A DNA stretch of 64,000 nucleotides from NCBI RefSeq assembly GCF_003201595.1, contig NZ_QJJS01000008.1, positions 62,001-126,000 of the forward strand, given 5' to 3'. This document shows, in pieces, positions 41,211-52,656 of this stretch (its first letter is position 1; the number at the start of each line of letters is the position of its first letter). The notes beneath the pieces are model-generated. The model was not told where the DNA came from and did no database searches. It worked only from the letters and a program-made list of their open reading frames with translations. The DNA is from Sphaerotilus hippei (GTDB lineage: Bacteria; Pseudomonadota; Gammaproteobacteria; Burkholderiales; Burkholderiaceae_C). A program made the position numbers and the translations under genes.

Positions 41211-41233
41211 GCGGCCGCTCGCCGGCTCAGCGC
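41204..41233. repeat. Inverted repeat containing both convergent stop codons
   Basis: The arms gcgctgagc (41204-41212) and gctcagcgc (41225-41233) are perfect nine-base complements. The corA stop (41208-41210) lies in the left arm and the NTF2-like gene's stop (41227-41229) in the right. There is no T tract, so it may act as a shared transcript 3' end without being a classical terminator. Confidence 0.6.
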
Positions 41234-41682
41234 GAGCGCAGCCGGCGCTGCAGCCAGCGCATCAGCACCCCGAGCACCGGCAGCTGGGCGTACAGCTCCT
41301 CGGCCGCATCCCAGTAGTCGCGGTGCCAGGCCACCCGCCCGTCGGGCGCAAAACGCAGCTGTGACGTGCCACGCACCTGCAGCGGCACGGCACGAGGCGA
41401 CAGGGCGAAGCTGAACGTCCAGGTCAGGAAACACTGGTCCCCCTCAGCCACGATGTCGTGCACCACGAAGCGGGGTCCGTGCAGCACCTCGAACATGTGC
41501 GCGAAGATCCGGCGGATCGCGGCCAGGCCACTCACCTCGTTGAACGGATCCTTGAACCAGGCCTGTTCGCTGTAGAGCTGCGCCAGCCGGTCCAGATCGG
41601 CGGGCTGCAGGGCCTCGTAGAAGCGCACCACCGCCTCGACCCGCGGATCGGCATGGCGCAGGGCGGACCCAGGGCCGCTCAC
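41227..41682 (-). CDS. NTF2/SnoaL-like protein
   Basis: A 151-residue protein with the NTF2-like cone fold. It opens with a helix (VEAVVRFYEALQPADLDRLAQLYSE), then AWFKDPFNEVSGLAAIRRIFAHMFE, then beta strands ending with VAWHRDYWDAAEELY. Such proteins bind small hydrophobic ligands or act as isomerases or hydrolases; the reaction here is unknown. Its start overlaps the SDR stop (ATGA), and it is the last gene of the lipid-modification operon. Confidence 0.8.
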   Translation of the reverse strand: MSGPGSALRHADPRVEAVVRFYEALQPADLDRLAQLYSEQAWFKDPFNEVSGLAAIRRIFAHMFEVLHGPRFVVHDIVAEGDQCFLTWTFSFALSPRAVPLQVRGTSQLRFAPDGRVAWHRDYWDAAEELYAQLPVLGVLMRWLQRRLRSR

Positions 41683-42452
41683 AGGCCGGTCCCCTTGCGG
41701 ATCAGCCCAAAGTACAGCCGGTCGGGCAGCAGCCCGAGCAGCTTCAGGAACCGGCTGAAGCGTTTCGGGAAGTGGATCTCGAAGTCTCCGGCCGCCCAGC
41801 CACTCAGGATCTGCCGGGCCGCCTCGTCGGGCGTGATCAGCGCGGGCATCACGAACGGGTTCTGCGCCGTCAGCGGCGTCGCCACGAAGCCGGGGTTGAT
41901 CACCGACACGCCCAGACCCTGGTCATGCAGGTCCATCCACAGCACCTCGGCCAACCCGATCAGCGCGGCCTTGGTCGGCCCGTAGGCCAGTGCATTGGGC
42001 AGGCCGCGGTAGCCGGCCACGCTGGCGACCAGGCTGAGGTGACCGGCCCGCTGGCGCAGCAGCACCGGCAGCACGGCATCCAGCACGTTCAGCGCGCCGA
42101 CGTAGTTGACCTGCTGATGGCGCAGCATGTCCGCCAGGTCAAAGGCCGTGGCGCGCTGGGGCCGGTAGTGGCCGGCGCAGACCATCACCAGGTCGAGCCG
42201 ACCGGTGGCGGCCAGCAGGTCGTCGCAGGCCTGGCCGATCTGCTCGCGCGAGGTCACGTCCGCCGGCAGCGCCAGCGCGCCCGGATGGCGCTGCACGAAC
42301 TGCTGCAGCGGGGCGGTCTGCCGGGCGCTGACCACGACCCGGGCGCCACGCGCGGCCAGCAGCCCGGCCGTGGCCAGGCCGATGCCGCTGGAGGCGCCCA
42401 CCACCCAGGCCACCTGGCCCGACCAGTCGCGCAATGCGGGATTGAGGCTCAT
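41679..42452 (-). CDS. Short-chain dehydrogenase/reductase
   Basis: A 257-residue classical SDR. The cofactor motif GASSGIG is at 19-25, catalytic Ser144 lies in LVASVAGY, and Y157-x3-K161 in AYGPTKAAL. An Asn-Tyr-Val-Gly-Ala helix precedes them. The C-terminus is hydrophobic (FLKLLGLLPDRLYFGLI), suggesting contact with membrane or lipid. SDR genes recur in fatty-acid-modification operons of this composition; the substrate is probably a lipid-derived alcohol or ketone, by inference. Confidence 0.88.
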   Translation of the reverse strand: MSLNPALRDWSGQVAWVVGASSGIGLATAGLLAARGARVVVSARQTAPLQQFVQRHPGALALPADVTSREQIGQACDDLLAATGRLDLVMVCAGHYRPQRATAFDLADMLRHQQVNYVGALNVLDAVLPVLLRQRAGHLSLVASVAGYRGLPNALAYGPTKAALIGLAEVLWMDLHDQGLGVSVINPGFVATPLTAQNPFVMPALITPDEAARQILSGWAAGDFEIHFPKRFSRFLKLLGLLPDRLYFGLIRKGTGL

Positions 42453-42467
42453 GTGCTGATCCTGCGC

Positions 42468-43018
42468 TCAGGGCTTGTGGAAGGACAGCGTGACCTCGCC
42501 CAGGCGGATGCCGAACTTGCTCATCGTCGCGCGGTTGAGCATCACCTGGCGATCCATCAGGTACATCCAGTCGTCGAACTGCACCTCGTAGGTCGTGCCG
42601 TCGACCGGCAGCCGCAGCGTGTACTGCCAGCGCAGTGCATTGCCCGCCGCTTCCCCCTTCGCCTCGCCCAGCACGTCGTCGGCCCGGCCGACATAACGGC
42701 CGTCGGCCTGGCGCGAGAGGCGCCAGACCCGGCGCTCGGTCTGGCCATCGCTGTAGGTGAAGTCCTCCTCGAGCACACCCTGGTCACCCTGCCAGCGGCC
42801 GACCATGCGCACCGTGAAACGCCGCTTGACCGCTCCGGAGCGGTCGGTGAACAGGCCATGGGCGGTGAGTTCGCCGTTGAAATACTCGCGCAGGTCGAGC
42901 ACCGGCGTCTGGCCCGTGTAGTCCTGCACCTGCGGGCCGGCGCAGCCCCCCAGCACGAGCGAACCCGCCAGGGCCGCCGCCGCCAGCAGGGACCGTCGCC
43001 ACGCACATCGTCTTGCCA

Positions 43019-43019
<1 letters not shown>
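42468..43019 (-). CDS. DUF3833-like lipoprotein
   Basis: A 183-residue lipoprotein: the signal peptide ends in LVLGGC, giving Cys26. The mature part begins YTGQTPVLDLREYFNGELTAHG and contains repeated beta strands (RRFTVRMVGRW, EEDFTYSDGQTERRVWRL, WMYLMDRQVMLNRATMSKFG), the pattern of DUF3833 proteins. The family is lipocalin-like in outline and is commonly linked to CFA-synthase operons. The start overlaps the MFS stop. Function is unknown, plausibly carrying or binding a modified lipid. Confidence 0.82.
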
Positions 43020-44337
<1,318 letters not shown>

Positions 44338-44341
<4 letters not shown>

Positions 44342-44919
44342 GGCGTGCCCAGCAAGGCCGCCCGCAGCGCCGGCTCGGGGCTGCGGGTCGACAGCCAGAT
44401 GCCGAAGAACAGCCGGGCGAATTCCGCATCGGCCACCGAGCCGACCGGGCGGCCGTTGAACAGGAAGGTCGCCACGCCCGACGCACTGCGGTGGTGGCCG
44501 ACCAGCCGGTCACCGGCCTGCACATCCGGGAAGATCGATTTCATCGCGGCCAGCCAGGCCGACTCCTGTGCCGGCTCGATGCGGCCGACCCGCCGCATCT
44601 CCTGCAGTGAACGCTCGGCGATGCCCGCCCCGTCGAGCGTGCGGGCATAGGCCAGCTCGAGCGCGAAGTCCCCGGCGGCATAACGCTCGGCCGTCAGCGC
44701 CGGCGCCGACTCGGGCACCCAGAGCCGGGCCTCGTAGATGCGCAGACCGAACCAGCGGAACTGCATGCGGCCCTGCTGCCGCACCGGGCCGAGCAGCGCG
44801 CCCAGTTCGGCCGGTGCGGTGGCCGCGCGGGCCGGCCGGGCGGCCCAGGGCAGTGCCGACAGCGCTGCCAGGCGCAGCAGCTGCCGGCGCCGCTGGAGGT
44901 GACCGGGCTGCGCAGCCAT
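44338..44919 (-). CDS. Chalcone-isomerase-like periplasmic protein
   Basis: A 193-residue protein with an arginine-rich signal region (RRRQLLRLAALSALPWAARPARA) suggesting export. The mature part fits the chalcone isomerase-like family: FRWFGLRIYEARLWVPE, then LELAYARTLDGAGIAERSLQEMRRVG, then ATFLFNGRPVGSVADAEFARLFFGIWLS. Bacterial members are mostly non-catalytic fatty-acid-binding-type proteins. The ATG at 44919 lies one base before the CFA stop; longer readings overlap CFA. Confidence 0.85.
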
Positions 44920-44920
44920 C

Positions 44921-46273
44921 TCAGACCCGTTCCGGCTTGCGCAGCGTGAACTGCATGACATTGGTGTTGCCAGTATCGAAGGCGGCTTCGCAGTAGCAGA
45001 GATAGAACGCCCAGGTCCGGGCAAAACGCTCATCGAAGCCCAGGCGCTGCACCGAGACCTGCTCGGCCAGGAAACGCTGGCGCCACCGGCGCAGGGTCTC
45101 GGCATAGTCCGCACCGAAGGCGAAGCTGCGCTCGACGATCAGTCCGGCCCGCTCGGCGGCGCGGCGGAACTCGGTCTCGCTGGGCAGCAACCCGCCCGGG
45201 AAGATGTACTGCTGGATGAAGTCGGTCGAGCGTGCATAGGACTCGAACAGGTCGTCGCGGATGGTGATGCTCTGGATGCAGGCCCGGCCGCCCGGCTTCA
45301 GGCAGCGCGCGACGGTCTCGAAATAGGACGGCCAGTAGCTGCGGCCCACCGCCTCGAACATCTCGATGGACAGCACCGCGTCGAAGGGCTCGTCGCGGAT
45401 GTCGCGGTAGTCCTGCAGGCGCAGGTCGGCCCGATCGCTCGTGCCCACGCGCCGCAGGCGTTCCTGCGCCCAGGCCAGCTGCTCGGTCGACAGCGTCACG
45501 CCGGTGACCGAGGCCCCGGCATCGCGCGTGGCGATCTCGGCCAGCGCCCCCCAGCCGCAGCCGATCTCGAGCACCCGCGGTGCGGGTGACGCCGCATCGG
45601 TCGGACCCCCGACCGGCACTCCGGCCTCGCGCAGCGCGCGGTGGACCTTGGCGTGCTGCGCCCGGACCAGATCGCCGTCGAGCCGCCCCTCGAACCAGGC
45701 GCTGGAGTAGTTCATCGTCTCGTCCAGCCAGCGGGCATAGAACGCGTTGCCCAGGTCGTAGTGGGCGTGGATGTTGCGCCGGCTGCCGGCGCGGGTGTTG
45801 CGGTTGCGCCAGTGGCGCAGGCGGCTCAGCAGCGAGCCCCACCAGGAGCCGTAGACCAGCGACTCGAGCTGGTCGCGGTTGTGGATGAACAGGCGCAGCA
45901 GGCCGGCCAGGTCGGGCGTGCTCCAGTCTCCGGCGATGTAGGTCTCGCCCACGCCGACATCACCGCGGGCCGCCGCCGCACCGAACAGCGACCAGTTGTG
46001 CAGGCGCAGCACCGCCAGCGGCTCGGCACCCTGGCCCAGGTGCAGGTGTCCGCCGCCCGGCAGGTGCAGCTCCAGCTGGCCATGCTGCATGCGGTCGAGC
46101 AGGCGCAGGGCCGCACGCGCGATCGCCGGTGCGTCGGCGGGAACGGTGGCCGGCGACACCGCAGCGGCGGTCGCCACCGCATGGGGCCAGTCGGAGGAGC
46201 AGGGACGGGTCGTGGCGGTGGTGCTCATGGGGAAGGACGGGTTGGAGAGACGGGACACGGGCGCTCGGCTCAT
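44921..46273 (-). CDS. cfa: Cyclopropane-fatty-acid-synthase-like SAM methyltransferase
   Basis: A 450-residue CFA-synthase-family enzyme methylating unsaturated acyl chains of membrane phospholipids. An N-terminal lipid-binding domain (about 35-140) precedes HYDLGNAFYARWLDETMNYSSAWF, the SAM motif VLEIGCGWGALAEIA, SIEMFEAVGRSYW and QYIFPGG. The start at 46273 overlaps the DUF1365 stop (ATGA), supporting it over an internal ATG at 46228. In Rhodobacter a homologue in a similar operon (UfaM) makes the methylated intermediate of furan fatty acids, so classical cyclopropane formation is not the only possibility. Confidence 0.88.
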   Translation of the reverse strand: MSRAPVSRLSNPSFPMSTTATTRPCSSDWPHAVATAAAVSPATVPADAPAIARAALRLLDRMQHGQLELHLPGGGHLHLGQGAEPLAVLRLHNWSLFGAAAARGDVGVGETYIAGDWSTPDLAGLLRLFIHNRDQLESLVYGSWWGSLLSRLRHWRNRNTRAGSRRNIHAHYDLGNAFYARWLDETMNYSSAWFEGRLDGDLVRAQHAKVHRALREAGVPVGGPTDAASPAPRVLEIGCGWGALAEIATRDAGASVTGVTLSTEQLAWAQERLRRVGTSDRADLRLQDYRDIRDEPFDAVLSIEMFEAVGRSYWPSYFETVARCLKPGGRACIQSITIRDDLFESYARSTDFIQQYIFPGGLLPSETEFRRAAERAGLIVERSFAFGADYAETLRRWRQRFLAEQVSVQRLGFDERFARTWAFYLCYCEAAFDTGNTNVMQFTLRKPERV

Positions 46274-47043
46274 CGGGTGACCGGGAGCACCGGCGGGGCG
46301 GGCTTGCGGAAGAACGGCACCCGCTTGAGCCACAGTCGCACGGCCTGCAGGTGGATGCGCACGAGGACACCCGCCGTCAGGAAAGGCATCGAGGCCCAGA
46401 GGCGCACGAGGCTGCCGGCCTGCAGCGGCTGCAATTCACCGCTGATGCTGGTCTGCAGCAGCGGCCCTTCGGCATCGTCGTGGTCGACACGCACGACCAG
46501 GCGCCCGGGCTGCGCGCCCCGGTCCGGCGAGCGCATGAACCGGAAGCGGTAGCAGCCCTGCACCGAGCAGAAGGGCGAGACATGGAAGACCTTGGCGGCC
46601 ACCTGCTCGCGGCCCCAGCCCAGCTGAGGCCCCTGCAGCAGGTAGCAGTGGCGCTCGCCGAAGGTGTTGTTGACCTCGGCGACCACCGCCGCCAGGCTGT
46701 CGTCGCGCCGGTGCACGAACCAGAAACTGACCGGCTTGAAGACCACGCCGAACACGCGCGGAAAGGTCTGCAACCAGACCTCGCCGTCACCGTCGTGCAC
46801 GCCCTGCTGCAGCAGCAGGGATTCGAGCCAGGCCAGCGCATCGTCGCCCCCCTCGCCGTGGTCACGATCGTGGAAGCTGACCAGGGCACGGCGATTGCGC
46901 GGCAGTGCCGTGTCGGGTCGCTCCCGCCACGTCCGCATCGGCAGCATCAGGAACCACGTCGGGTAGTGGAAGGCGTGGTGCGCCGGGCGCAGCCGGGTGT
47001 GGCGCACCACGCCCCGGCCGAGCAGCGGTGCAGGCGGCTTCAT
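46270..47043 (-). CDS. DUF1365 family protein
   Basis: A 257-residue protein with the DUF1365 opening GRGVVRHTRLRPAHHAFHYPTWFLML. It then shows LQTFPRVFGVVFKPVSFWFVHRRDD, VAEVNNTFGERHCYLL and KVFHVSPFCSVQGCYRFRF. The family is almost always found between an FAD amine-oxidase-like gene and a CFA-like methyltransferase, as here. Its reaction is not established. Coupled by ATGA overlaps on both sides. Confidence 0.9.
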   Translation of the reverse strand: MKPPAPLLGRGVVRHTRLRPAHHAFHYPTWFLMLPMRTWRERPDTALPRNRRALVSFHDRDHGEGGDDALAWLESLLLQQGVHDGDGEVWLQTFPRVFGVVFKPVSFWFVHRRDDSLAAVVAEVNNTFGERHCYLLQGPQLGWGREQVAAKVFHVSPFCSVQGCYRFRFMRSPDRGAQPGRLVVRVDHDDAEGPLLQTSISGELQPLQAGSLVRLWASMPFLTAGVLVRIHLQAVRLWLKRVPFFRKPAPPVLPVTR

Positions 47044-48359
47044 GCGACCCGCCGTTCGGGCGCCGAGGCCCAGGCCCGCTTCAGGCCGTCGAGCACCCGC
47101 AGGCCGGAGGACAGGCCGTCCTCGTGGAAGCCGTAGCCTCCCCAGGCGCCGCAGAACCAGGTGTGGCGCCGGCCCTGCAGCTCGGCCACCCGGGGCTGGG
47201 CGGCGATCGCGGCCTGGTCGAACACCGGATGGGCGTAGTCGAAGGTGGCCAGCACCTGGTCGGGCCGGGGCTCGCGCACCGGGTTCAGCGACACGATCAC
47301 CGGCTGTGCGAACGGCAGCGGCTGCAGGCGGTCGAGCAGGTAGTGCAGGCAGACGCCCGACTGCTCGAGGGCCTCGGTGGGCGCGTGCTCGTAGTTCCAG
47401 GCGGCCCAGGCCTTGCGGCGGCGCGGCAGCAGCGCCGTGTCGGTGTGCAGCACGGCCCGATTCGGGTGGTAGGTGATCGCACCGAGCACGGCCCGCTCGT
47501 CGGCATCGGCCTGCTCGCCCAGCAAGGCCAGCGCCTGATCCGAATGGCAGGCCAGCACCACCTCGTCGAAGACCTCGGCGCCATGCCGGCTGTGCACCGT
47601 CACCGGCCCGCCGCCGGCCGGCCGATGCAGGCCGGTCACCGGCGACGACAGGCGCACGTCCTGCAGGCGCGGCAGCATGCGACGGATGTACTCGCGTGCA
47701 CCACCGGTGACCGTGTACCACTGCGGCCGGTCGGTCACCTGCAGCAGACCGTGGTTGTGGCAGAAGCGGATCATGGTCGCGATCGGGAAGCGCAGCATCT
47801 GCTCGGTCGGGCAGGACCAGATGCAGCCGATCATCGGCAGGAAATACCAGCGCCGGAACGCGTCGCCGAAGCGGTGTTCATCGAGGAAATCGGCGATGGG
47901 CTGCTGCAGTTCGGCGTCGGCGCCCTGCACCGCCAGGCGGGTGGTCAGCCGGTTGAAACGCATCAGGTCGGCCAGCATGCCGAGGAAGCGGGGCCGCAGC
48001 AGGTTGCGGCGCTGCGCGAAGACGGTGCCGAGGTCACAGCCGCTCCACTCCAGCCCGCCCCCGTCGGCCTGGACCGAAAACGACATGTCCGACGCCGACG
48101 TGTGCACCTGCAGTTCGGCGAACAGCTCGAGCAGCCGCGGGTAGGTGCGGTGGTTGAACACCAGGAAGCCGGTATCGACCCCATGGGTCACGGGCCGCCC
48201 CAGCGCATCGGGCAAGGTCACGTCGACGGTGTGGGTGTGGCCGCCCAGGCGGTCCTCGGCCTCGAACAGGGTGACGCGGCAGCGCTCGTCGGGATGGCTC
48301 AGACGCCACGCCACCGACAGCCCGGCAATGCCCGAGCCCACCACGGCCACCCGTTTCAT
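47040..48359 (-). CDS. FAD-dependent amine-oxidase-like oxidoreductase
   Basis: A 439-residue flavoprotein with the Rossmann motif VVGSGIAGLSVAWRL (GxGxxG at 8-13), GGHTHTVD, and DTGFLVFNHRTYP. The family signature FHEDGLSSGLRVLDGL lies near the C-terminus, where FAD binding closes. It resembles the NAD/FAD-binding proteins that head CFA-associated operons and is likely to oxidise lipid-linked substrates. The ATG at 48359 follows GGAGG by seven bases. It is the first gene of the leftward operon and its transcript would carry an unusually long leader of about 420 bases. Confidence 0.88.
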   Translation of the reverse strand: MKRVAVVGSGIAGLSVAWRLSHPDERCRVTLFEAEDRLGGHTHTVDVTLPDALGRPVTHGVDTGFLVFNHRTYPRLLELFAELQVHTSASDMSFSVQADGGGLEWSGCDLGTVFAQRRNLLRPRFLGMLADLMRFNRLTTRLAVQGADAELQQPIADFLDEHRFGDAFRRWYFLPMIGCIWSCPTEQMLRFPIATMIRFCHNHGLLQVTDRPQWYTVTGGAREYIRRMLPRLQDVRLSSPVTGLHRPAGGGPVTVHSRHGAEVFDEVVLACHSDQALALLGEQADADERAVLGAITYHPNRAVLHTDTALLPRRRKAWAAWNYEHAPTEALEQSGVCLHYLLDRLQPLPFAQPVIVSLNPVREPRPDQVLATFDYAHPVFDQAAIAAQPRVAELQGRRHTWFCGAWGGYGFHEDGLSSGLRVLDGLKRAWASAPERRVA

Positions 48360-48462
48360 GCCCACCTCCGCCGTGCCGCGCGGCGCGCCTGACGGCGGCG
48401 CTTTGCGCCGTCAGGGCCGAGGGGGGAAGGGGGGGATAGAGAAATCGCCGTGCAGCGCCCCA

Positions 48463-48483
48463 GGGGGAATGAGGGAGGGAGGG
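48463..48483 (+). other. G-quadruplex-type motif in a polypurine tract
   Basis: Four runs of at least three G (48463-48467, 48473-48475, 48477-48479, 48481-48483) with loops of five, one and one bases meet the usual G-quadruplex pattern. More G runs occur at 48420-48435. The tract lies in the 5' leader of the leftward operon, where the RNA would carry the C-rich strand. The remaining part of 48360-48750 holds no gene I can support. Confidence 0.55.
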
Positions 48484-48793
48484 AGGAGGAGGAGAACCGC
48501 CCCGGGATTCCGGCCGGCATGACCGGCCGTCTGCACGACGACAAAAACCTGTCGGGACCTGCGCTGGTCAAGCCCCTGACCGAAGGTTGCGCCCTGGCGC
48601 CGGAAACCGGCATGCGCAACTTCCCGTATGTGAACGCGGACGCGCGGAAAAGTTCCGGTCCGGCGACGTACTTTTCCGTACCAGTCGAACGGGTCCGGCA
48701 GCGATGGTCCCCGGCGCTCCATCGAAGGTCGATCGCCACGCTCACATCAGGATTGATCATCTTTTGTCTAGGTCAAATGGCAAGATTGATCGA

Positions 48794-48842
48794 ATACTAG
48801 TTGGACAAATAACTTTGTACAAGCATTTGTCCAAGACATAAT
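48794..48842. promoter_or_regulatory. Divergent promoter and operator region of the LitR/CarH-like regulator
   Basis: A perfect 10-bp inverted repeat, ttggacaaat (48801-48810) and atttgtccaa (48825-48834), brackets the palindrome ttgtacaa (48815-48822). Rightward, TTGTAC (48815-48820) with a 16-base spacer and CATAAT (48837-48842) forms a sigma-70-like promoter for the MerR gene. Leftward, TTGTAC (48822-48817) with a 17-base spacer and TAGTAT (48799-48794) can drive the FAD/CFA operon. MerR-type regulators bind such repeats, so binding would cover both promoters. Confidence 0.65.
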
Positions 48843-48848
48843 TGCCGC

Positions 48849-49793
48849 ATGGCCGAACTTGTCCCCCTCCTCGCTCCGCCGCTGACCATCGCCGCCGTCG
48901 AGCGCGACACCCGCATCGGCAAGGACACCCTGCGGGTGTGGGAGCGGCGTTACGGCTTTCCCAACCCCGACCGCGACAGCAACGGGGAGCGCCTCTACCC
49001 GGCCGATCAGGTGGAGCGGCTGCGACACGTCAAGCGGCTGCTGGACGCCGGTCACCGCCCCGGTCGCATCGTCAGCCTGGGCCTCGACGTGCTGAAGGGC
49101 TTTGGCGACCTGGCCCCCTCACCCGCCCGCACCTCCGCGGCCTACCCCGAGCCGGGTTCGGACGTCACCCTGCTCGTGGACCTTCTACGCAGACACGAGC
49201 TGCTTGGATTCAGGCGCCATCTGACGCAGTGCCTGCTGCGGCGCGGCCTCGGCCGTTTTGTCACCGACGTGGCCCTGCCGCTGGTGCACGAGATCGGCAC
49301 GGCCTGGTCACGTGGCCAGATGGACATCTTCGAGGAGCACCTGTGCAGCGACACGCTGGAGACGGTGCTGCGTGCGGCCATCGCCGGCGCCCCGGAGGCC
49401 GACGAATCCAGCACGCCCCGGGTGCTCAGCAGCACCTTTCCCGACGAGCCGCACGGCCTGGGCCTGCTGATGGCCGAGGCGCTGATGTCGGTGGAAGGCT
49501 GCTGGTGCACGAGCCTGGGCCGCCAGACCCCGCTGCGCGACCTGGTGATGGCCGCGCAGGCCTTCCGCTCACAGATCATCGTGCTCAGCTTCACGGCGGT
49601 GAACAACCCCAACCAGACGCTGGAAGGCCTGCTGGAACTGCGCACGCAGTTGCCCGACCACATCGAGATCTGGGCTGGCAGCGCCCTGCCCGTGCTGCAG
49701 CGCCGCGCCGGACCGGGCATCCGGCTGATGACGTCGATGCACCAGATCGCCCCGGCCGTGGCGGAGTGGCGCAAACGCCAGGGCGACCGGTGA
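48849..49793 (+). CDS. litR: MerR-family cobalamin-binding photoreceptor regulator (LitR/CarH-like)
   Basis: A 314-residue regulator. A MerR winged helix occupies about 12-80 (IAAVERDTRIGKDTLRVWERRYGFP). The middle four-helix domain has W153 and, nine residues on, E163-H164, the W-x9-EH signature that caps adenosylcobalamin in CarH. The C-terminal Rossmann domain has E200-P-H202-G-L-G205, the ExHxxG motif whose His binds cobalt. These residues are seen directly; light-dependent repression by AdoCbl release is known for the family and inferred here. Its ATG lies just past the divergent operator, implying autoregulation. It overlaps the Nudix gene by ATG/TGA sharing. Confidence 0.88.
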   Translation: MAELVPLLAPPLTIAAVERDTRIGKDTLRVWERRYGFPNPDRDSNGERLYPADQVERLRHVKRLLDAGHRPGRIVSLGLDVLKGFGDLAPSPARTSAAYPEPGSDVTLLVDLLRRHELLGFRRHLTQCLLRRGLGRFVTDVALPLVHEIGTAWSRGQMDIFEEHLCSDTLETVLRAAIAGAPEADESSTPRVLSSTFPDEPHGLGLLMAEALMSVEGCWCTSLGRQTPLRDLVMAAQAFRSQIIVLSFTAVNNPNQTLEGLLELRTQLPDHIEIWAGSALPVLQRRAGPGIRLMTSMHQIAPAVAEWRKRQGDR

Positions 49794-50731
49794 TGGCCAT
49801 GCCGGCGGACGCAGGTCGGATCCGGGACCTGCTGCACGCGGCCCGGGCCCATGATCCGACGTCCCGGCAGCCGCTGTTCCTGCTGGACCGGGGCCGACCC
49901 GTGCCGGTGGGCAGCGTGGCACACCGGCACCGGGCGCCGGTGCTGCACTGGGCCGGCTGGTCCGGGCTCGGTGCCCGGTGCTCGGTCCATGACGGCGGCC
50001 TGCTGCTCGATGCCGGTGCACAGGCCGATGTCCGGCAGGCGCTGCTCGCCCGCCTCGCCGCCGACCTGCGCCGGCAGGGGCTGATCGAGGGCTGGCGCGA
50101 CGAGCTGTTCCCGGTCCAGGCGCTCGATGCGCTGCCCACCCACGCGGGCGGTCCCCCGGCACTGACCCGGATCGAGCGGGCCAGCGCGCGCTTCTGGGGC
50201 ACGCTGACCTTCGGCGCCCACTGCAACGGCTACGTGGCCGATGCCGATGCCCGCCCGGTAGCGCTGTGGATCGGTGAACGGGCCGCCGACAAGGCGGTCG
50301 ATCCCGGTCGGCTCGACAACCTGATCGGCGCCGGCGTGCCCGACGGTCAGACGCCCGCCCAGGCGCTGCTGCGCGAGGCCTGGGAAGAGGCCGGCCTGCA
50401 CCCCGCCCAGCTTCAGCGGGTCCGCACTGGCAGCGTGCTGGAGCTGCTGCGTGACCGGCCGGAAGGACTGCAGCGCGAACACCTGCATGTGCACGACCTG
50501 GAGCTGCCCGCCGGGCTGCAGCCGGTCAACCAGGACGGCGAGGTCGCCCGCTTCCACCTGCTGCCGATCGCCGAGGCCCTCGAGGCGGCCCGTGACGGCC
50601 GCATGACCGTGGACGCGGCACTGGCCACGCTCGACTTCGCGCAGCGCCACCGACTGCTCGACGCGGCCGGGCTGTGCGCCGAGGACCTCGAGGGCCTCGA
50701 CGCCCTGCGCTGGCAGCCGCCGCGCCCTTGA
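49793..50731 (+). CDS. DUF4743/Nudix hydrolase
   Basis: A 312-residue protein with an N-terminal DUF4743-like domain (about 1-115) and a Nudix domain. The catalytic half of the Nudix box, REAWEEAGL (near 196-204), is intact, while the box's leading Gly and Glu read Ala and Gln. The family includes predicted nucleotide or thiamine-diphosphate-related hydrolases. The ATG shares a base with the regulator's TGA (49791-49795), so it is co-translated with the light-sensor gene; an oxidised or cofactor-derived diphosphate is a plausible but unproven substrate. Confidence 0.85.
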   Translation: MAMPADAGRIRDLLHAARAHDPTSRQPLFLLDRGRPVPVGSVAHRHRAPVLHWAGWSGLGARCSVHDGGLLLDAGAQADVRQALLARLAADLRRQGLIEGWRDELFPVQALDALPTHAGGPPALTRIERASARFWGTLTFGAHCNGYVADADARPVALWIGERAADKAVDPGRLDNLIGAGVPDGQTPAQALLREAWEEAGLHPAQLQRVRTGSVLELLRDRPEGLQREHLHVHDLELPAGLQPVNQDGEVARFHLLPIAEALEAARDGRMTVDAALATLDFAQRHRLLDAAGLCAEDLEGLDALRWQPPRP

Positions 50732-50836
50732 GCGGGTCGAGCGTTCAGAGATTTACAACGCCGGCGACAAGCCCGGTGAACCTGCCGCCGCCCACCGGCT
50801 CTTAAAGTCCGGTTCACCGAATGACGCTTGGCCGAC

Positions 50837-51409
50837 ATGACCACTTCACCTGCCCCGATCCCCGCCAGCCGCTACAACACCGTGGCCATCGCCCTGCACT
50901 GGCTGCTGGCGCTGCTGATCATCGCCTCGCTGGGGCTGGGTCTGTACATGGCCGATCTGCCGTTCTCGATGACGCGCCTGAAGCTCTACAACTGGCACAA
51001 GTGGGCCGGGGTCACGATCCTGCTGCTGTCGGCCGCCCGCCTGCTGTGGCGCCTGACGCACCGCCCGCCGGCCCTGCCCGCGGCCATCAACGCGGCGATG
51101 CCGGCCTGGCAGCGCGCTGCCCACCACGGCACGCACCACCTGATGTACCTGCTGTTCTTTGCCATCCCGCTGACGGGCTGGGCCTACAGCTCGGCCGCCG
51201 GCTTCCCGATCGTCTGGTTCGGCGTGCTGCCGCTGCCTGACTTCGTGCCCGCCGACAAGGCCCTGGCCGAGCTGATCAAGCCGCTGCACGAGATCACCGC
51301 CAAGGCCCTGGCCGCGCTGATTCTGCTGCACATCGGCGCCGCACTGAAACACCAGCTGATCGACCGGGACCGGCTGCTGGCACGCATCGGCATCGGCCGT
51401 GCCGACTGA
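50837..51409 (+). CDS. Cytochrome b561-family membrane protein
   Basis: A 190-residue diheme-type membrane protein with four helices. Candidate heme-binding His lie in ALHWLLALLII (helix 1), NWHKWAGV, HHGTHHLMYLLFFAIPLTGWAY, and LHEITAKALAALILLHIGAALKHQ. It likely passes electrons from the quinone pool to periplasmic partners. ATG at 50837 is chosen; a TTG three codons upstream is possible. It precedes two yceI genes, a linkage common in proteobacteria. Confidence 0.92.
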   Translation: MTTSPAPIPASRYNTVAIALHWLLALLIIASLGLGLYMADLPFSMTRLKLYNWHKWAGVTILLLSAARLLWRLTHRPPALPAAINAAMPAWQRAAHHGTHHLMYLLFFAIPLTGWAYSSAAGFPIVWFGVLPLPDFVPADKALAELIKPLHEITAKALAALILLHIGAALKHQLIDRDRLLARIGIGRAD

Positions 51410-51445
51410 ACCGTCCCGCCTCCACGCCCAACCGGAGTCCACCGC

Positions 51446-52027
51446 ATGAGCAAGCACACCCTCGCCCTGGCCCTCACGGCCGCCCTGACCGTGTCGACCC
51501 TGCCCTTCGCCGCCTCGGCGGCCGGCCAGGCCGTCGATCTCGCCAAGAGCGAGATCGGCTTCACCGCCAAGCAGATGGGCGTGCCGCTGCAAGGCCAGTT
51601 CGGCAAGTTCGACGCCCAGATGGCGTTCGACCCCGCCAAGCCCGAGACCGGCAAGGTGAGCTTCTCGATCGACCTGGGCAGCGCCAGGCTGGGCTCGGCC
51701 GAGACCGAGGCCGAGCTGGTCAAGGCCGAGTGGTTCAACACCGCGAAGTTTCCGCGTGCCACCTTCCAGAGCACGGCCATCAAGGCCAGCGGCCCCAACA
51801 AGTTCGACGTCACCGGCAAGCTGACCATCAAGGGCCAGAGCCGTGACGTGGTCGTGCCGGTGACGCTGGCCGCGGCCGGCGCCCAGCAGAGCATCGCCAC
51901 CGGCGGCTTCGCGATGAAACGCCTCGATTTCAAGATCGGTGACGGCGACTGGACCGACACGTCCATCGTCGCCAACGACGTGCAGGTGAAGTTCAAGCTG
52001 CAGCTTCAGGGCGTGGCCGCTCGCTGA
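51446..52027 (+). CDS. YceI-family periplasmic protein (first copy)
   Basis: A 193-residue exported protein with a signal peptide ending near ASAAGQAVDL and a YceI lipocalin-like barrel. Signature stretches are SEIGFTAKQMGVPLQGQFGKF, AEWFNTAKFPRATFQSTAI and FDVTGKLTIKGQSRDVVVPV. YceI proteins bind isoprenoid-type molecules such as polyprenoids or quinones in the periplasm. A GGAG site precedes the ATG. It is cotranscribed with cytochrome b561 and the second copy, with which it shares only moderate similarity. Confidence 0.94.
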   Translation: MSKHTLALALTAALTVSTLPFAASAAGQAVDLAKSEIGFTAKQMGVPLQGQFGKFDAQMAFDPAKPETGKVSFSIDLGSARLGSAETEAELVKAEWFNTAKFPRATFQSTAIKASGPNKFDVTGKLTIKGQSRDVVVPVTLAAAGAQQSIATGGFAMKRLDFKIGDGDWTDTSIVANDVQVKFKLQLQGVAAR

Positions 52028-52083
52028 GCACCACGCCGGTTTCCTTCCGATTTCCCGACCCTGACCAACCCAAGGATCCGTCC

Positions 52084-52656
52084 ATGAAAAAAGCCCTCCT
52101 GCTGGCCCTCGTGCCGACCCTGTTCGCCGCTGCCGGCGCTGCCCAGGCCGCGACCTACGCGATCGACCCGACGCACACCTACGTGACCTTCGAGGCCAAG
52201 CACTTCGGCACCTCGACCAACCGCGGTCGTTTCGACAAGAAGAGCGGCAGCGTCGAGTTCGACCGCGCCGCCAAGACCGGCAAGGTGGACCTGACGCTGG
52301 AAACGGGCTCGATCAGCACCGGCCTCGCACAGTTCGACACCCACCTCAAGAGCGCGGACTTCTTCAACGCCGCCACCTTCCCGACCGCCAAGTTCGTGGC
52401 CGACAAGTTCGTGTTCGACGGCGACAAGGTGAGCGAGGTCACGGGTTCGCTGACGATGCTGGGCAAGACCAACGCCGTCACGCTGAAGGCCAACAGCTTC
52501 AACTGCTACGAGAACCCGATGCTCAAGCGTGAAGTGTGCGGCGGCGACTTCGAGACCACGATCCAGCGCAGCCAGTGGGGCATCAACTACGGCCTGACCT
52601 ACGGCATCCCCGATGCCGTCAAGCTGCTGATCCAGGTCGAAGCCGTCAAGCAGTGA
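52084..52656 (+). CDS. YceI-family periplasmic protein (second copy)
   Basis: A 190-residue YceI protein with a signal peptide cut near GAAQAATYAID. The barrel shows THTYVTFEAKHFGTSTNRGRF, SADFFNAATFPTAKF, VTGSLTMLGKTNAVTLK and a CYENPMLKREVCGGDFE segment with a cysteine pair. It is closer to the E. coli YceI type than the first copy. It ends in convergence with the small membrane-protein gene on the other strand, the two stops overlapping by about ten bases. Confidence 0.94.
   Translation: MKKALLLALVPTLFAAAGAAQAATYAIDPTHTYVTFEAKHFGTSTNRGRFDKKSGSVEFDRAAKTGKVDLTLETGSISTGLAQFDTHLKSADFFNAATFPTAKFVADKFVFDGDKVSEVTGSLTMLGKTNAVTLKANSFNCYENPMLKREVCGGDFETTIQRSQWGINYGLTYGIPDAVKLLIQVEAVKQ

What the first reader, a model, noticed from the sequence alone, without database searches (positions are those of the whole stretch)
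41227..50731. Cobalamin/light-sensor-controlled membrane-lipid modification module
A MerR regulator with both AdoCbl signatures (W153-x9-E163-H164 and E200-x-H202-x2-G205) faces an eight-gene operon: FAD oxidoreductase, DUF1365, CFA-like methyltransferase, chalcone-isomerase-like protein, MFS permease, DUF3833 lipoprotein, SDR and NTF2-like protein. The gene set recalls, from memory, the Rhodobacter singlet-oxygen operon that includes the furan-fatty-acid methylase UfaM. Here sensing would be by a photoreceptor instead of RpoE/ChrR. Most joins are ATGA overlaps, so the products are probably made in fixed ratio. The idea is that light triggers remodelling of membrane fatty acids, perhaps to quench photo-oxidants, in a non-phototrophic or facultative bacterium.
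Basis: partly seen in the sequence, partly recalled or inferred. Interest (0 to 1): 0.8.

Follow-up and report, generated by a model that had tools for sequence, protein, structure and literature searches.

The report
B12-type light-regulator beside furan-lipid operon
A vitamin-B12-type light-sensor gene sits back to back with a complete gene set for making protective furan fatty acids; the pairing recurs across one bacterial order, and the DNA between them holds a precisely spaced pair of likely switch sites and an uncatalogued structured RNA.

Summary
A LitR/CarH-type regulator (48849-49793, +) with the TtCarH cobalamin ligands faces eight minus-strand genes. The first three correspond to the known furan-fatty-acid (FuFA) enzymes UfaD, UfaO and UfaM. 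The host belongs to the Sphaerotilus/Leptothrix group. The LitR-UfaD pairing recurs: 25 of 28 related genomes, 66 of 69 named loci. Light control of FuFA genes by a LitR is published for Pseudomonas, so the kind is known; here the regulator keeps cobalamin ligands that Pseudomonas-type LitRs lack: a new variant.

(2) In 7 of 11 congeners a glutathione peroxidase starts 2 nt after the distal palindrome; the window lacks it. (3) Upstream of UfaD lies a covarying RNA with a CU-rich loop and an RpoE-type promoter, absent from Rfam, found once in each of 27 of 36 genomes of the family. So "photoreceptor instead of RpoE" is doubtful; both inputs look wired in. Light response, FuFA product and RNA function are untested.

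The parts
48849..49793 (+). LitR/CarH-type MerR regulator, 314 aa
   Evidence: MerR_1 and B12-binding_2; TtCarH 3whp E 6e-26; W153, E163, H164, H202 invariant in a 30-row alignment
49793..50731 (+). NUDIX hydrolase with N-terminal DUF4743-like part; start overlaps the LitR stop (TGATG)
   Evidence: DUF4743 below its curated cut-off; beside LitR also in L033 and L050
48826..48840 (.). proximal palindrome O2, TTTGTCCAAGACATA
48763..48777 (.). distal palindrome O1, TTTGTCTAGGTCAAA, 63 bp from O2
48629..48656 (-). RpoE-type promoter GGAACTT-N16-TCACA upstream of the RNA element
48441..48542 (-). structured RNA element (outer stem, variable hairpin 1, hairpin 2 with CU-rich loop)
   Evidence: no Rfam match
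48356..48760 (-). 134-codon frame opening 2 nt after O1 and ending in ATGA with the UfaD start; status unclear
47040..48359 (-). UfaD homologue (FAD/NAD oxidoreductase)
   Evidence: assignment from gene order and PMC7380195
46270..47043 (-). UfaO homologue (DUF1365)
   Evidence: E 4.5e-76; assignment from gene order and PMC7380195
44921..46273 (-). UfaM-type methyltransferase (CMAS fold)
   Evidence: Gln at the E. coli Cfa His266 position; trio clade 100/99
44338..44919 (-). chalcone-isomerase-like protein (Chalcone_3)
   Evidence: E 2.4e-10
43019..44341 (-). MFS_2/GPH-type transporter
42468..43019 (-). DUF3833 protein
   Evidence: E 5.6e-73
41679..42452 (-). short-chain dehydrogenase
41227..41682 (-). 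NTF2/SnoaL-like protein

Best explanation
This is a furan-fatty-acid defence operon under at least two inputs. In the dark, AdoCbl-loaded LitR, probably a tetramer like CarH (inferred), binds the two palindromes O1 and O2, which lie on one DNA face 63 bp apart, and shuts the promoters between them: its own, and the divergent one that in relatives leads to glutathione peroxidase and then the FuFA genes. Light breaks the Co-C bond, LitR lets go, and transcription starts both ways (inferred from CarH). UfaM, UfaD and UfaO then methylate, desaturate and oxygenate cis-vaccenoyl chains to a methyl-furan fatty acid that scavenges photo-oxidants (inferred from R. sphaeroides). A second input is an RpoE-type promoter just upstream of UfaD that makes a structured small RNA and may read through into the operon (inferred). 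Shown here: gene content, ligand residues, conservation of the pairing, operator pair and spacing, RNA structure by covariation, promoter motif. Not shown: any light, B12, lipid or RNA activity.
For: Gene content. Complete UfaM-UfaD-UfaO trio; 65 methyltransferases linked to UfaO form one clade (100/99) that includes the window and excludes E. coli Cfa and six distant rows; all 65 have Gln at the E. coli Cfa His266 position, which is His in the seven others. Regulator ligands: 35 of 36 clade rows keep W-x9-EH and the axial His; W-x9-EH in 80 of 80 named loci and E-x-H-x2-[GA] in 79 of 80, L206 having D-x-H; eight regulators of one unnamed family with Pseudomonas-like gene order lack them. Pairing: 25 of 28 genomes, 66 of 69 named loci, and an Azoarcus sp. 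KH32C plasmid with the same eight-gene order. Operators: 21 of 33 loci hold a pair with at most 5 mismatches in total, spacing 63/62/64 in 18/2/1; 0 of 165 control regions had fewer than 8. A site with at most 1 mismatch in 52 of 77 named loci against 1 of 770 controls; spacing 63 is the commonest (14 pairs of 38, next 3). O1 ends 2 nt before the glutathione peroxidase ATG in 7 congeners, so its promoter most likely lies at or between O1 and O2. A PduO-type adenosyltransferase is encoded.
Against: No functional data. Genome-wide the palindrome is not enriched (27 sites at up to 2 mismatches, reversed-pattern control 26), so a wider regulon is not shown. A copy upstream of hemH in this genome is absent in 10 of 10 readable congeners. 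The GxxH element of the published photoreceptor signature reads DxxH in the window and varies in the clade, and the TtCarH His132 position is Ser. No Rossmann-type B12-binding Pfam model is matched. In the window UfaD lies about 400 nt from O1 with the RNA between, so LitR control of UfaD itself is an inference. 12 of 33 loci and 44 of 77 named loci lack a clear O1/O2 pair. The window's own -10 between O1 and O2 departs from the ATATTAG found in 11 of 18 loci.
Confidence: 0.62

Rival explanations
1. LitR controls only itself (and glutathione peroxidase where present); the FuFA operon is driven by RpoE through the promoter in front of the RNA, and the LitR-UfaD neighbourhood is historical.
For: GGAACTT-N16/17-TCnnA upstream of the RNA in 11 of 27 loci against 0 of 2700 controls; shorter U runs at the RNA 3' end where UfaD follows (17 loci) than elsewhere (10 loci), p 0.005 uncorrected for kinship, which would favour read-through; RpoE encoded.
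Against: The LitR-UfaD pairing persists in families where the RNA was not found (0 of 24 genomes outside the window's family) and in loci with short gaps such as L044 and L045, where the O1/O2 region lies between the two genes with little room for another promoter.
Confidence: 0.25
2. The regulator senses something other than light: it binds cobalamin but acts as a B12 or redox sensor.
For: Signature element GxxH and the His132 position differ; V. cholerae MerR is modelled as ROS-responsive (PMC5241685 passages); no experiment exists here.
Against: W, EH, axial His and the GxxxP element are kept; CtMerR lacks the His132 equivalent and its Co-C bond is still cleaved by light (PMC11796333 passages).
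Confidence: 0.1
3. UfaM here makes cyclopropane or only methyl-branched chains, not furan fatty acids.
For: Product never measured; UfaM alone gives 11Me-12t-18:1 (PMC7380195 passages).
Against: UfaD and UfaO are adjacent; R. palustris homologues did the full pathway in R. sphaeroides (PMC7380195 passages); the His266 position differs from Cfa.
Confidence: 0.12

Closest known systems
Pseudomonas PplR1/PmlR1 light-inducible cluster (class II LitR; PMC9758184, passages seen)
   Same: MerR/LitR regulator gene region with SDR, FAD oxidoreductase and ufaM; ufaM is 25-33-fold light-induced in P. mendocina; at the PME6650 promoter one PmlR2 site overlaps -35 and one lies downstream of the start site
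   Different: Class II LitR is described as unable to bind B12 and takes the signal from a LOV protein; the operator is TGTACA-N12-TGTACA; phrB in the cluster. Here cobalamin ligands are kept, the likely operators are TTTGTC-N3-GACAAA 63 bp apart, there is no photolyase gene between regulator and operon, and symporter and chalcone-isomerase-like genes (and in many relatives glutathione peroxidase) are in the block
Rhodobacter sphaeroides RSP1091-1087 plus ufaM under RpoE/ChrR (PMC7380195, PMC3818230, PMC7074977, passages seen)
   Same: UfaD, UfaO, GPH symporter, hypothetical protein and SDR in the same order
   Different: Control by RpoE/ChrR; ufaM (RSP2144) elsewhere; five genes only, and no LitR is described there
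Thermus thermophilus CarH (L138, PDB 3whp/5c8d)
   Same: Domain order and W-x9-EH, ExHxxG residues; divergent genes beside the regulator
   Different: Divergent genes are phytoene/squalene synthase and photolyase; His132 and GxxH present
Shewanella RpoE2/ChrR regulon (PMC4336711, passages seen)
   Same: Periplasmic glutathione peroxidase and a cfa-type operon in one photo-oxidative regulon
   Different: ECF-sigma/ChrR control with TGATC promoters

Membership tests
CarH/LitR class I (AdoCbl photoreceptor) | MerR HTH plus cobalamin-binding light-sensing part homologous to TtCarH | tested here: met
   E 6e-26 over residues 12-258; B12-binding_2; Rossmann-type B12 model not matched
CarH/LitR class I (AdoCbl photoreceptor) | Residues W-x9-EH and axial His (ExHxxG) | tested here: met
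CarH/LitR class I (AdoCbl photoreceptor) | SignatureFinder set GxxW, EH, GxxH, GxxxP (PMC11796333) | tested here: inconclusive
   GxxW, EH and GxxxP present; GxxH is DxxH in the window and variable in the clade
CarH/LitR class I (AdoCbl photoreceptor) | AdoCbl binding and light-dependent release of DNA | not testable with these tools
   needs protein
LitR class II (Pseudomonas) | Loss of the cobalamin site | tested here: not met
UfaM/UfaD/UfaO furan-fatty-acid pathway | All three genes together | tested here: met
   orthology to the R. sphaeroides and R. palustris proteins is by family and order, their sequences were not fetched
UfaM/UfaD/UfaO furan-fatty-acid pathway | Methyl-furan fatty acid product | not testable with these tools
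   needs FAME analysis
Cyclopropane fatty acid synthase (Cfa) | Cys139 and His266 of E. coli Cfa (residue roles recalled) | tested here: not met
   Ser and Gln in the window; only Gln separates the trio proteins from the other rows
RpoE/ChrR singlet-oxygen operon | Sigma factor gene beside the operon | tested here: not met
   none of the 8 Sigma70_r2 matches of the genome lies on the window's contig C8
RpoE/ChrR singlet-oxygen operon | TGATC-N18-CGTAT-type promoter upstream | tested here: not met
   not found in the window LitR-UfaD gap
RpoE/ChrR singlet-oxygen operon | ChrR anti-sigma factor in the genome | not tested
   no ChrR search was made
RpoE-dependent small RNA | GGAACTT-N16/17-TCnnA promoter in front of a structured RNA | tested here: met
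   sequence features only
RpoE-dependent small RNA | RpoE-dependent transcription | not testable with these tools
   needs RNA
Any Rfam family (for the RNA) | Match to a curated model | tested here: not met
   none at E up to 5, window copy; five relatives: four weak hits, none at gathering score

The most novel reading that the evidence does not exclude
A cobalamin-photoreceptor switch in which a LitR tetramer clamps two palindromes six helical turns apart, locking two divergent promoters at once, and so gates a lipid-peroxide and furan-fatty-acid defence operon; wedged into the same locus is a new RpoE-dependent small RNA family with a Shine-Dalgarno-complementary CU-rich loop, which joins light sensing, envelope stress and membrane-lipid remodelling in one regulatory hub across many Burkholderiales.
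Probability: 0.35. Interest if true: 0.78.

Novelty: new variant of a known kind. Interest (0 to 1): 0.6.

Why it matters
Furan fatty acids act as scavengers of photo-oxidants, and their control is known in few bacteria. If right, vitamin B12 would be the light antenna for membrane-lipid defence in a large group of bacteria, and the 63-bp operator pair would give a clean, testable model of how a CarH-type tetramer represses two promoters. The RNA is a candidate new small-RNA family with strong covariation and a specific promoter class, so its role can be tested directly in culturable Leptothrix, Sphaerotilus and Rubrivivax.

Tried and rejected
Rejected or left open: (1) hemH as a LitR target. 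One 1-mismatch palindrome lies upstream of ferrochelatase in this genome, but 0 of 10 readable congeners keep it (G012 could not be read by the script, G006 has no match). (Shewanella pairs hemH2 with glutathione peroxidase under RpoE2, PMC4336711, so the idea had a precedent.) (2) A wider regulon from genome-wide palindrome counts: no enrichment. (3) The published PplR/PmlR operator T(G/A)TACA-N12-TGTA(C/T)A: no match in the 260-nt stretches scanned (L046, L049, L058, L059 not scanned); the window has a lone TTGTACAA between O1 and O2. (4) The RNA as a cis-only leader of UfaD: in 10 of 27 genomes no UfaD lies within about 1.5 kb; eight of these ten share neighbours that look by eye like GST and purB genes. 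(5) Phototrophy of the host: no reaction-centre (Photo_RC) match. (6) The 134-codon frame after O1 as a conserved gene: open frames also in L050, L033, L037, short ones in L038 and L047; left open. (7) Weak Rfam hits are below gathering score; taken as chance.

Limits. The scripts printed 70, 51 and 78 as denominators because L240 was given a stale upstream length; without it they are 69, 50 and 77. The 33 loci include near-duplicates (L039, L040, L042). In one search the Caballeronia sp. NK8 row was framed wrongly by me, and L063 and L064 are short fragments; all three were left out of counts and of the tree. Loci without a readable motif were skipped (L043, L055). Organism names come only; gene names for neighbours are by eye unless a Pfam call is cited.
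Full report
What is there. The regulator at 48849-49793 (+) and eight minus-strand genes at 48359-41227 are real and match the families named. The window lies in a 4.43-Mb, 46-contig genome. A NUDIX/DUF4743-like gene overlaps the regulator's stop.

Regulator. It aligns with T. thermophilus CarH over residues 12-258 (E 6e-26). W153, E163, H164 and H202 are invariant in a 30-row alignment. Of 36 clade rows, 35 keep W-x9-EH and the axial His; the exception, L052, is aberrant over both stretches. The window clade is separate from them and from TtCarH. Against a simple class I label: no Rossmann-type B12 model in Pfam is matched, GxxH of the published photoreceptor signature (PMC11796333, passages) reads DxxH, and the TtCarH His132 position is Ser.

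Enzymes. PMC7380195 (passages) reports that UfaM, UfaD (RSP1091, NAD/FAD-binding) and UfaO (RSP1090) suffice for a methyl-furan fatty acid in vivo and that single deletions of RSP1087-1089 leave the profile unchanged. The PMC7074977 table annotates RSP1089 as a GPH-family symporter and RSP1087 as an SDR. The window operon has that order with UfaM and the chalcone-isomerase-like gene inserted and an NTF2-like gene added. Its methyltransferase falls in a clade of 65 proteins linked to UfaO in genomes of the same order, class and phylum (100/99; seven rows outside). All 65 have Gln where E. coli Cfa has His266; the seven others have His. At Cys139 the 65 have Ser 50, Ala 10, Cys 4, Gly 1, and the six distant others Ser, so only position 266 separates the groups (residue roles recalled). 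The own genome has two further CMAS matches, one weak; they are not in the tree because the script did not find a frame.

Conservation of the pairing. Of 60 genomes (own included), 28 have a near-full-length regulator. 25 of these have UfaD divergently next to it; one is cut by a contig end (G006), and in G040 and G051 it was not in the 20 kb fetched, although both carry a trio beside another LitR type. Of 80 named loci, the best matches to the window regulator, 69 have at least 3 kb upstream and 66 of these show UfaD on the opposite strand; of 50 with at least 9.5 kb, 34 show all eight families. Azoarcus sp. KH32C carries the same nine genes in the same order on a plasmid. Cupriavidus pinatubonensis carries the eight beside a TetR-type regulator. 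Eleftheria terrae and Comamonas endophytica plasmids hold the regulator without the operon in the stretch seen.

Operators. Upstream of the regulator lies TTTGTC-N3-GACAAA. Of 33 regulator loci, 21 have two copies with at most 5 mismatches in total, 63 bp apart in 18, 62 in two and 64 in one; none of 165 first-order Markov controls had fewer than 8. Of 77 named loci, 52 have a site with at most 1 mismatch (1 of 770 controls), and 63 is the commonest pair spacing (14 of 38; next 3); 33 of 77 have a pair with at most 5 mismatches. In the window, O1 is 48763-48777 and O2 48826-48840; three matches in 64 kb against 0.25 expected. In 11 of the 18 loci with 63-bp spacing ATATTAG, a likely -10, lies between the sites; the window reads AATACTAG there. 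O1 ends 2 nt before the glutathione peroxidase start codon in seven of eleven congeners, and 2 nt before an ATG in the window, so a promoter toward UfaD most likely lies at or between the two sites. The layout, not the sequence, resembles the two PmlR2 sites at a P. mendocina promoter (PMC9758184, passages).

Glutathione peroxidase. A GSHPx gene (Pfam on L035; tblastn on the rest) lies between regulator and UfaD in 12 of 26 gaps examined, not in the window. Shewanella groups a periplasmic glutathione peroxidase and a cfa operon under RpoE2/ChrR (PMC4336711, passages), so the association has precedent.

RNA element. At 48441-48542 (-), 14 homologues align with a 10-bp outer stem and a 10-bp hairpin that closes a CU-rich loop. 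96.8% of 280 cells pair and 14 of 20 pairs show two-sided changes; none of 500 shuffles reached either value (a third measure, further pair types, was reached in 6 of 500); slid structures pair 39-51% (the structure was drawn on this alignment). RNAalifold on its own gives the same two helices, 16 of 21 pairs with two-sided changes. The window copy folds at z -4.0. A covariance model finds one copy in each of 27 of 60 genomes, all in the window's family (27 of 36; 0 of 24 outside; stricter filters), and in 28 of 80 named loci, each on the strand opposite to the regulator, with UfaD visible in 27 of the 28. UfaD lies within about 1.5 kb in 17 of 27; in 12 of these 17 the regulator is in the same stretch. 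Upstream, GGAACTT occurs within 200 nt in 17 of 27 (28 of 2700 controls) and GGAACTT-N16/17-TCnnA in 11 of 27 (0 of 2700). Genome-wide the N16 pattern has 4 hits against 11 in the reversed control, so position and conservation count, not frequency. The genome has an RpoE above the curated cut-off (TIGR02939, 262 against 236 bits). No Rfam family matches. Two searches of the paper library for CU-rich-loop small RNAs listed one paper each, neither on this RNA by title and abstract start. The loop is complementary to Shine-Dalgarno sequences, so a trans-acting small RNA is the likeliest role (inference); small RNAs are part of the R. sphaeroides singlet-oxygen response (PMC7074977, passages).

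Verdict. Light control of FuFA genes by LitR is published for Pseudomonas (PMC9758184), so this is a new variant: a cobalamin-ligand LitR, a new operator architecture and an embedded RNA. The listings showed no paper that I recognised as reporting a B12-type LitR with the FuFA operon; only passages of seven papers were seen, and the 2018 and 2020 J. Bacteriol. LitR papers were not read.

Noticed in passing
window 50828-52656: A cytochrome b561-type gene and two tandem frames that look by eye like YceI proteins follow the LitR-NUDIX pair; T. thermophilus also has a YceI gene near carH (L138).
   Followed up: partly
L317:616-8239 (own genome C1): A second MerR-type gene without a cobalamin model match sits near a peroxidase gene, an SDR and a photolyase-family gene: a possible second light-response locus.
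   Followed up: partly
window 48356-48760 (-): A 134-codon frame starts 2 nt after O1 and ends in ATGA with UfaD; L050 has a frame of equal length ending at the same distance from UfaD, crossing the RNA element.
   Followed up: partly
window 48471-48494: The + strand reads GAGGGAGGGAGGGAGGAGGAGGAG, a run that could form a G-quadruplex on the template strand of the operon.
   Followed up: no
window 43697-43735: A run of 13 CAG codons (poly-glutamine) sits in the MFS_2 transporter; not checked in relatives.
   Followed up: no
L052 (G024): The regulator of this locus lacks W-x9-EH and the axial His in an otherwise complete module; frameshift, misread frame or real loss not resolved.
   Followed up: no
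L060, L061, L062: Another LitR type (26-30% identity) that keeps the cobalamin ligands lies near a UfaD-UfaO-UfaM trio and a second, distant CMAS protein in other families of the order.
   Followed up: no
L179, L183-L186, L188-L190: Where the RNA is not beside UfaD it often lies near genes that look by eye like GST and purB, and in some loci glutathione peroxidase, suggesting an older home for the RNA.
   Followed up: partly
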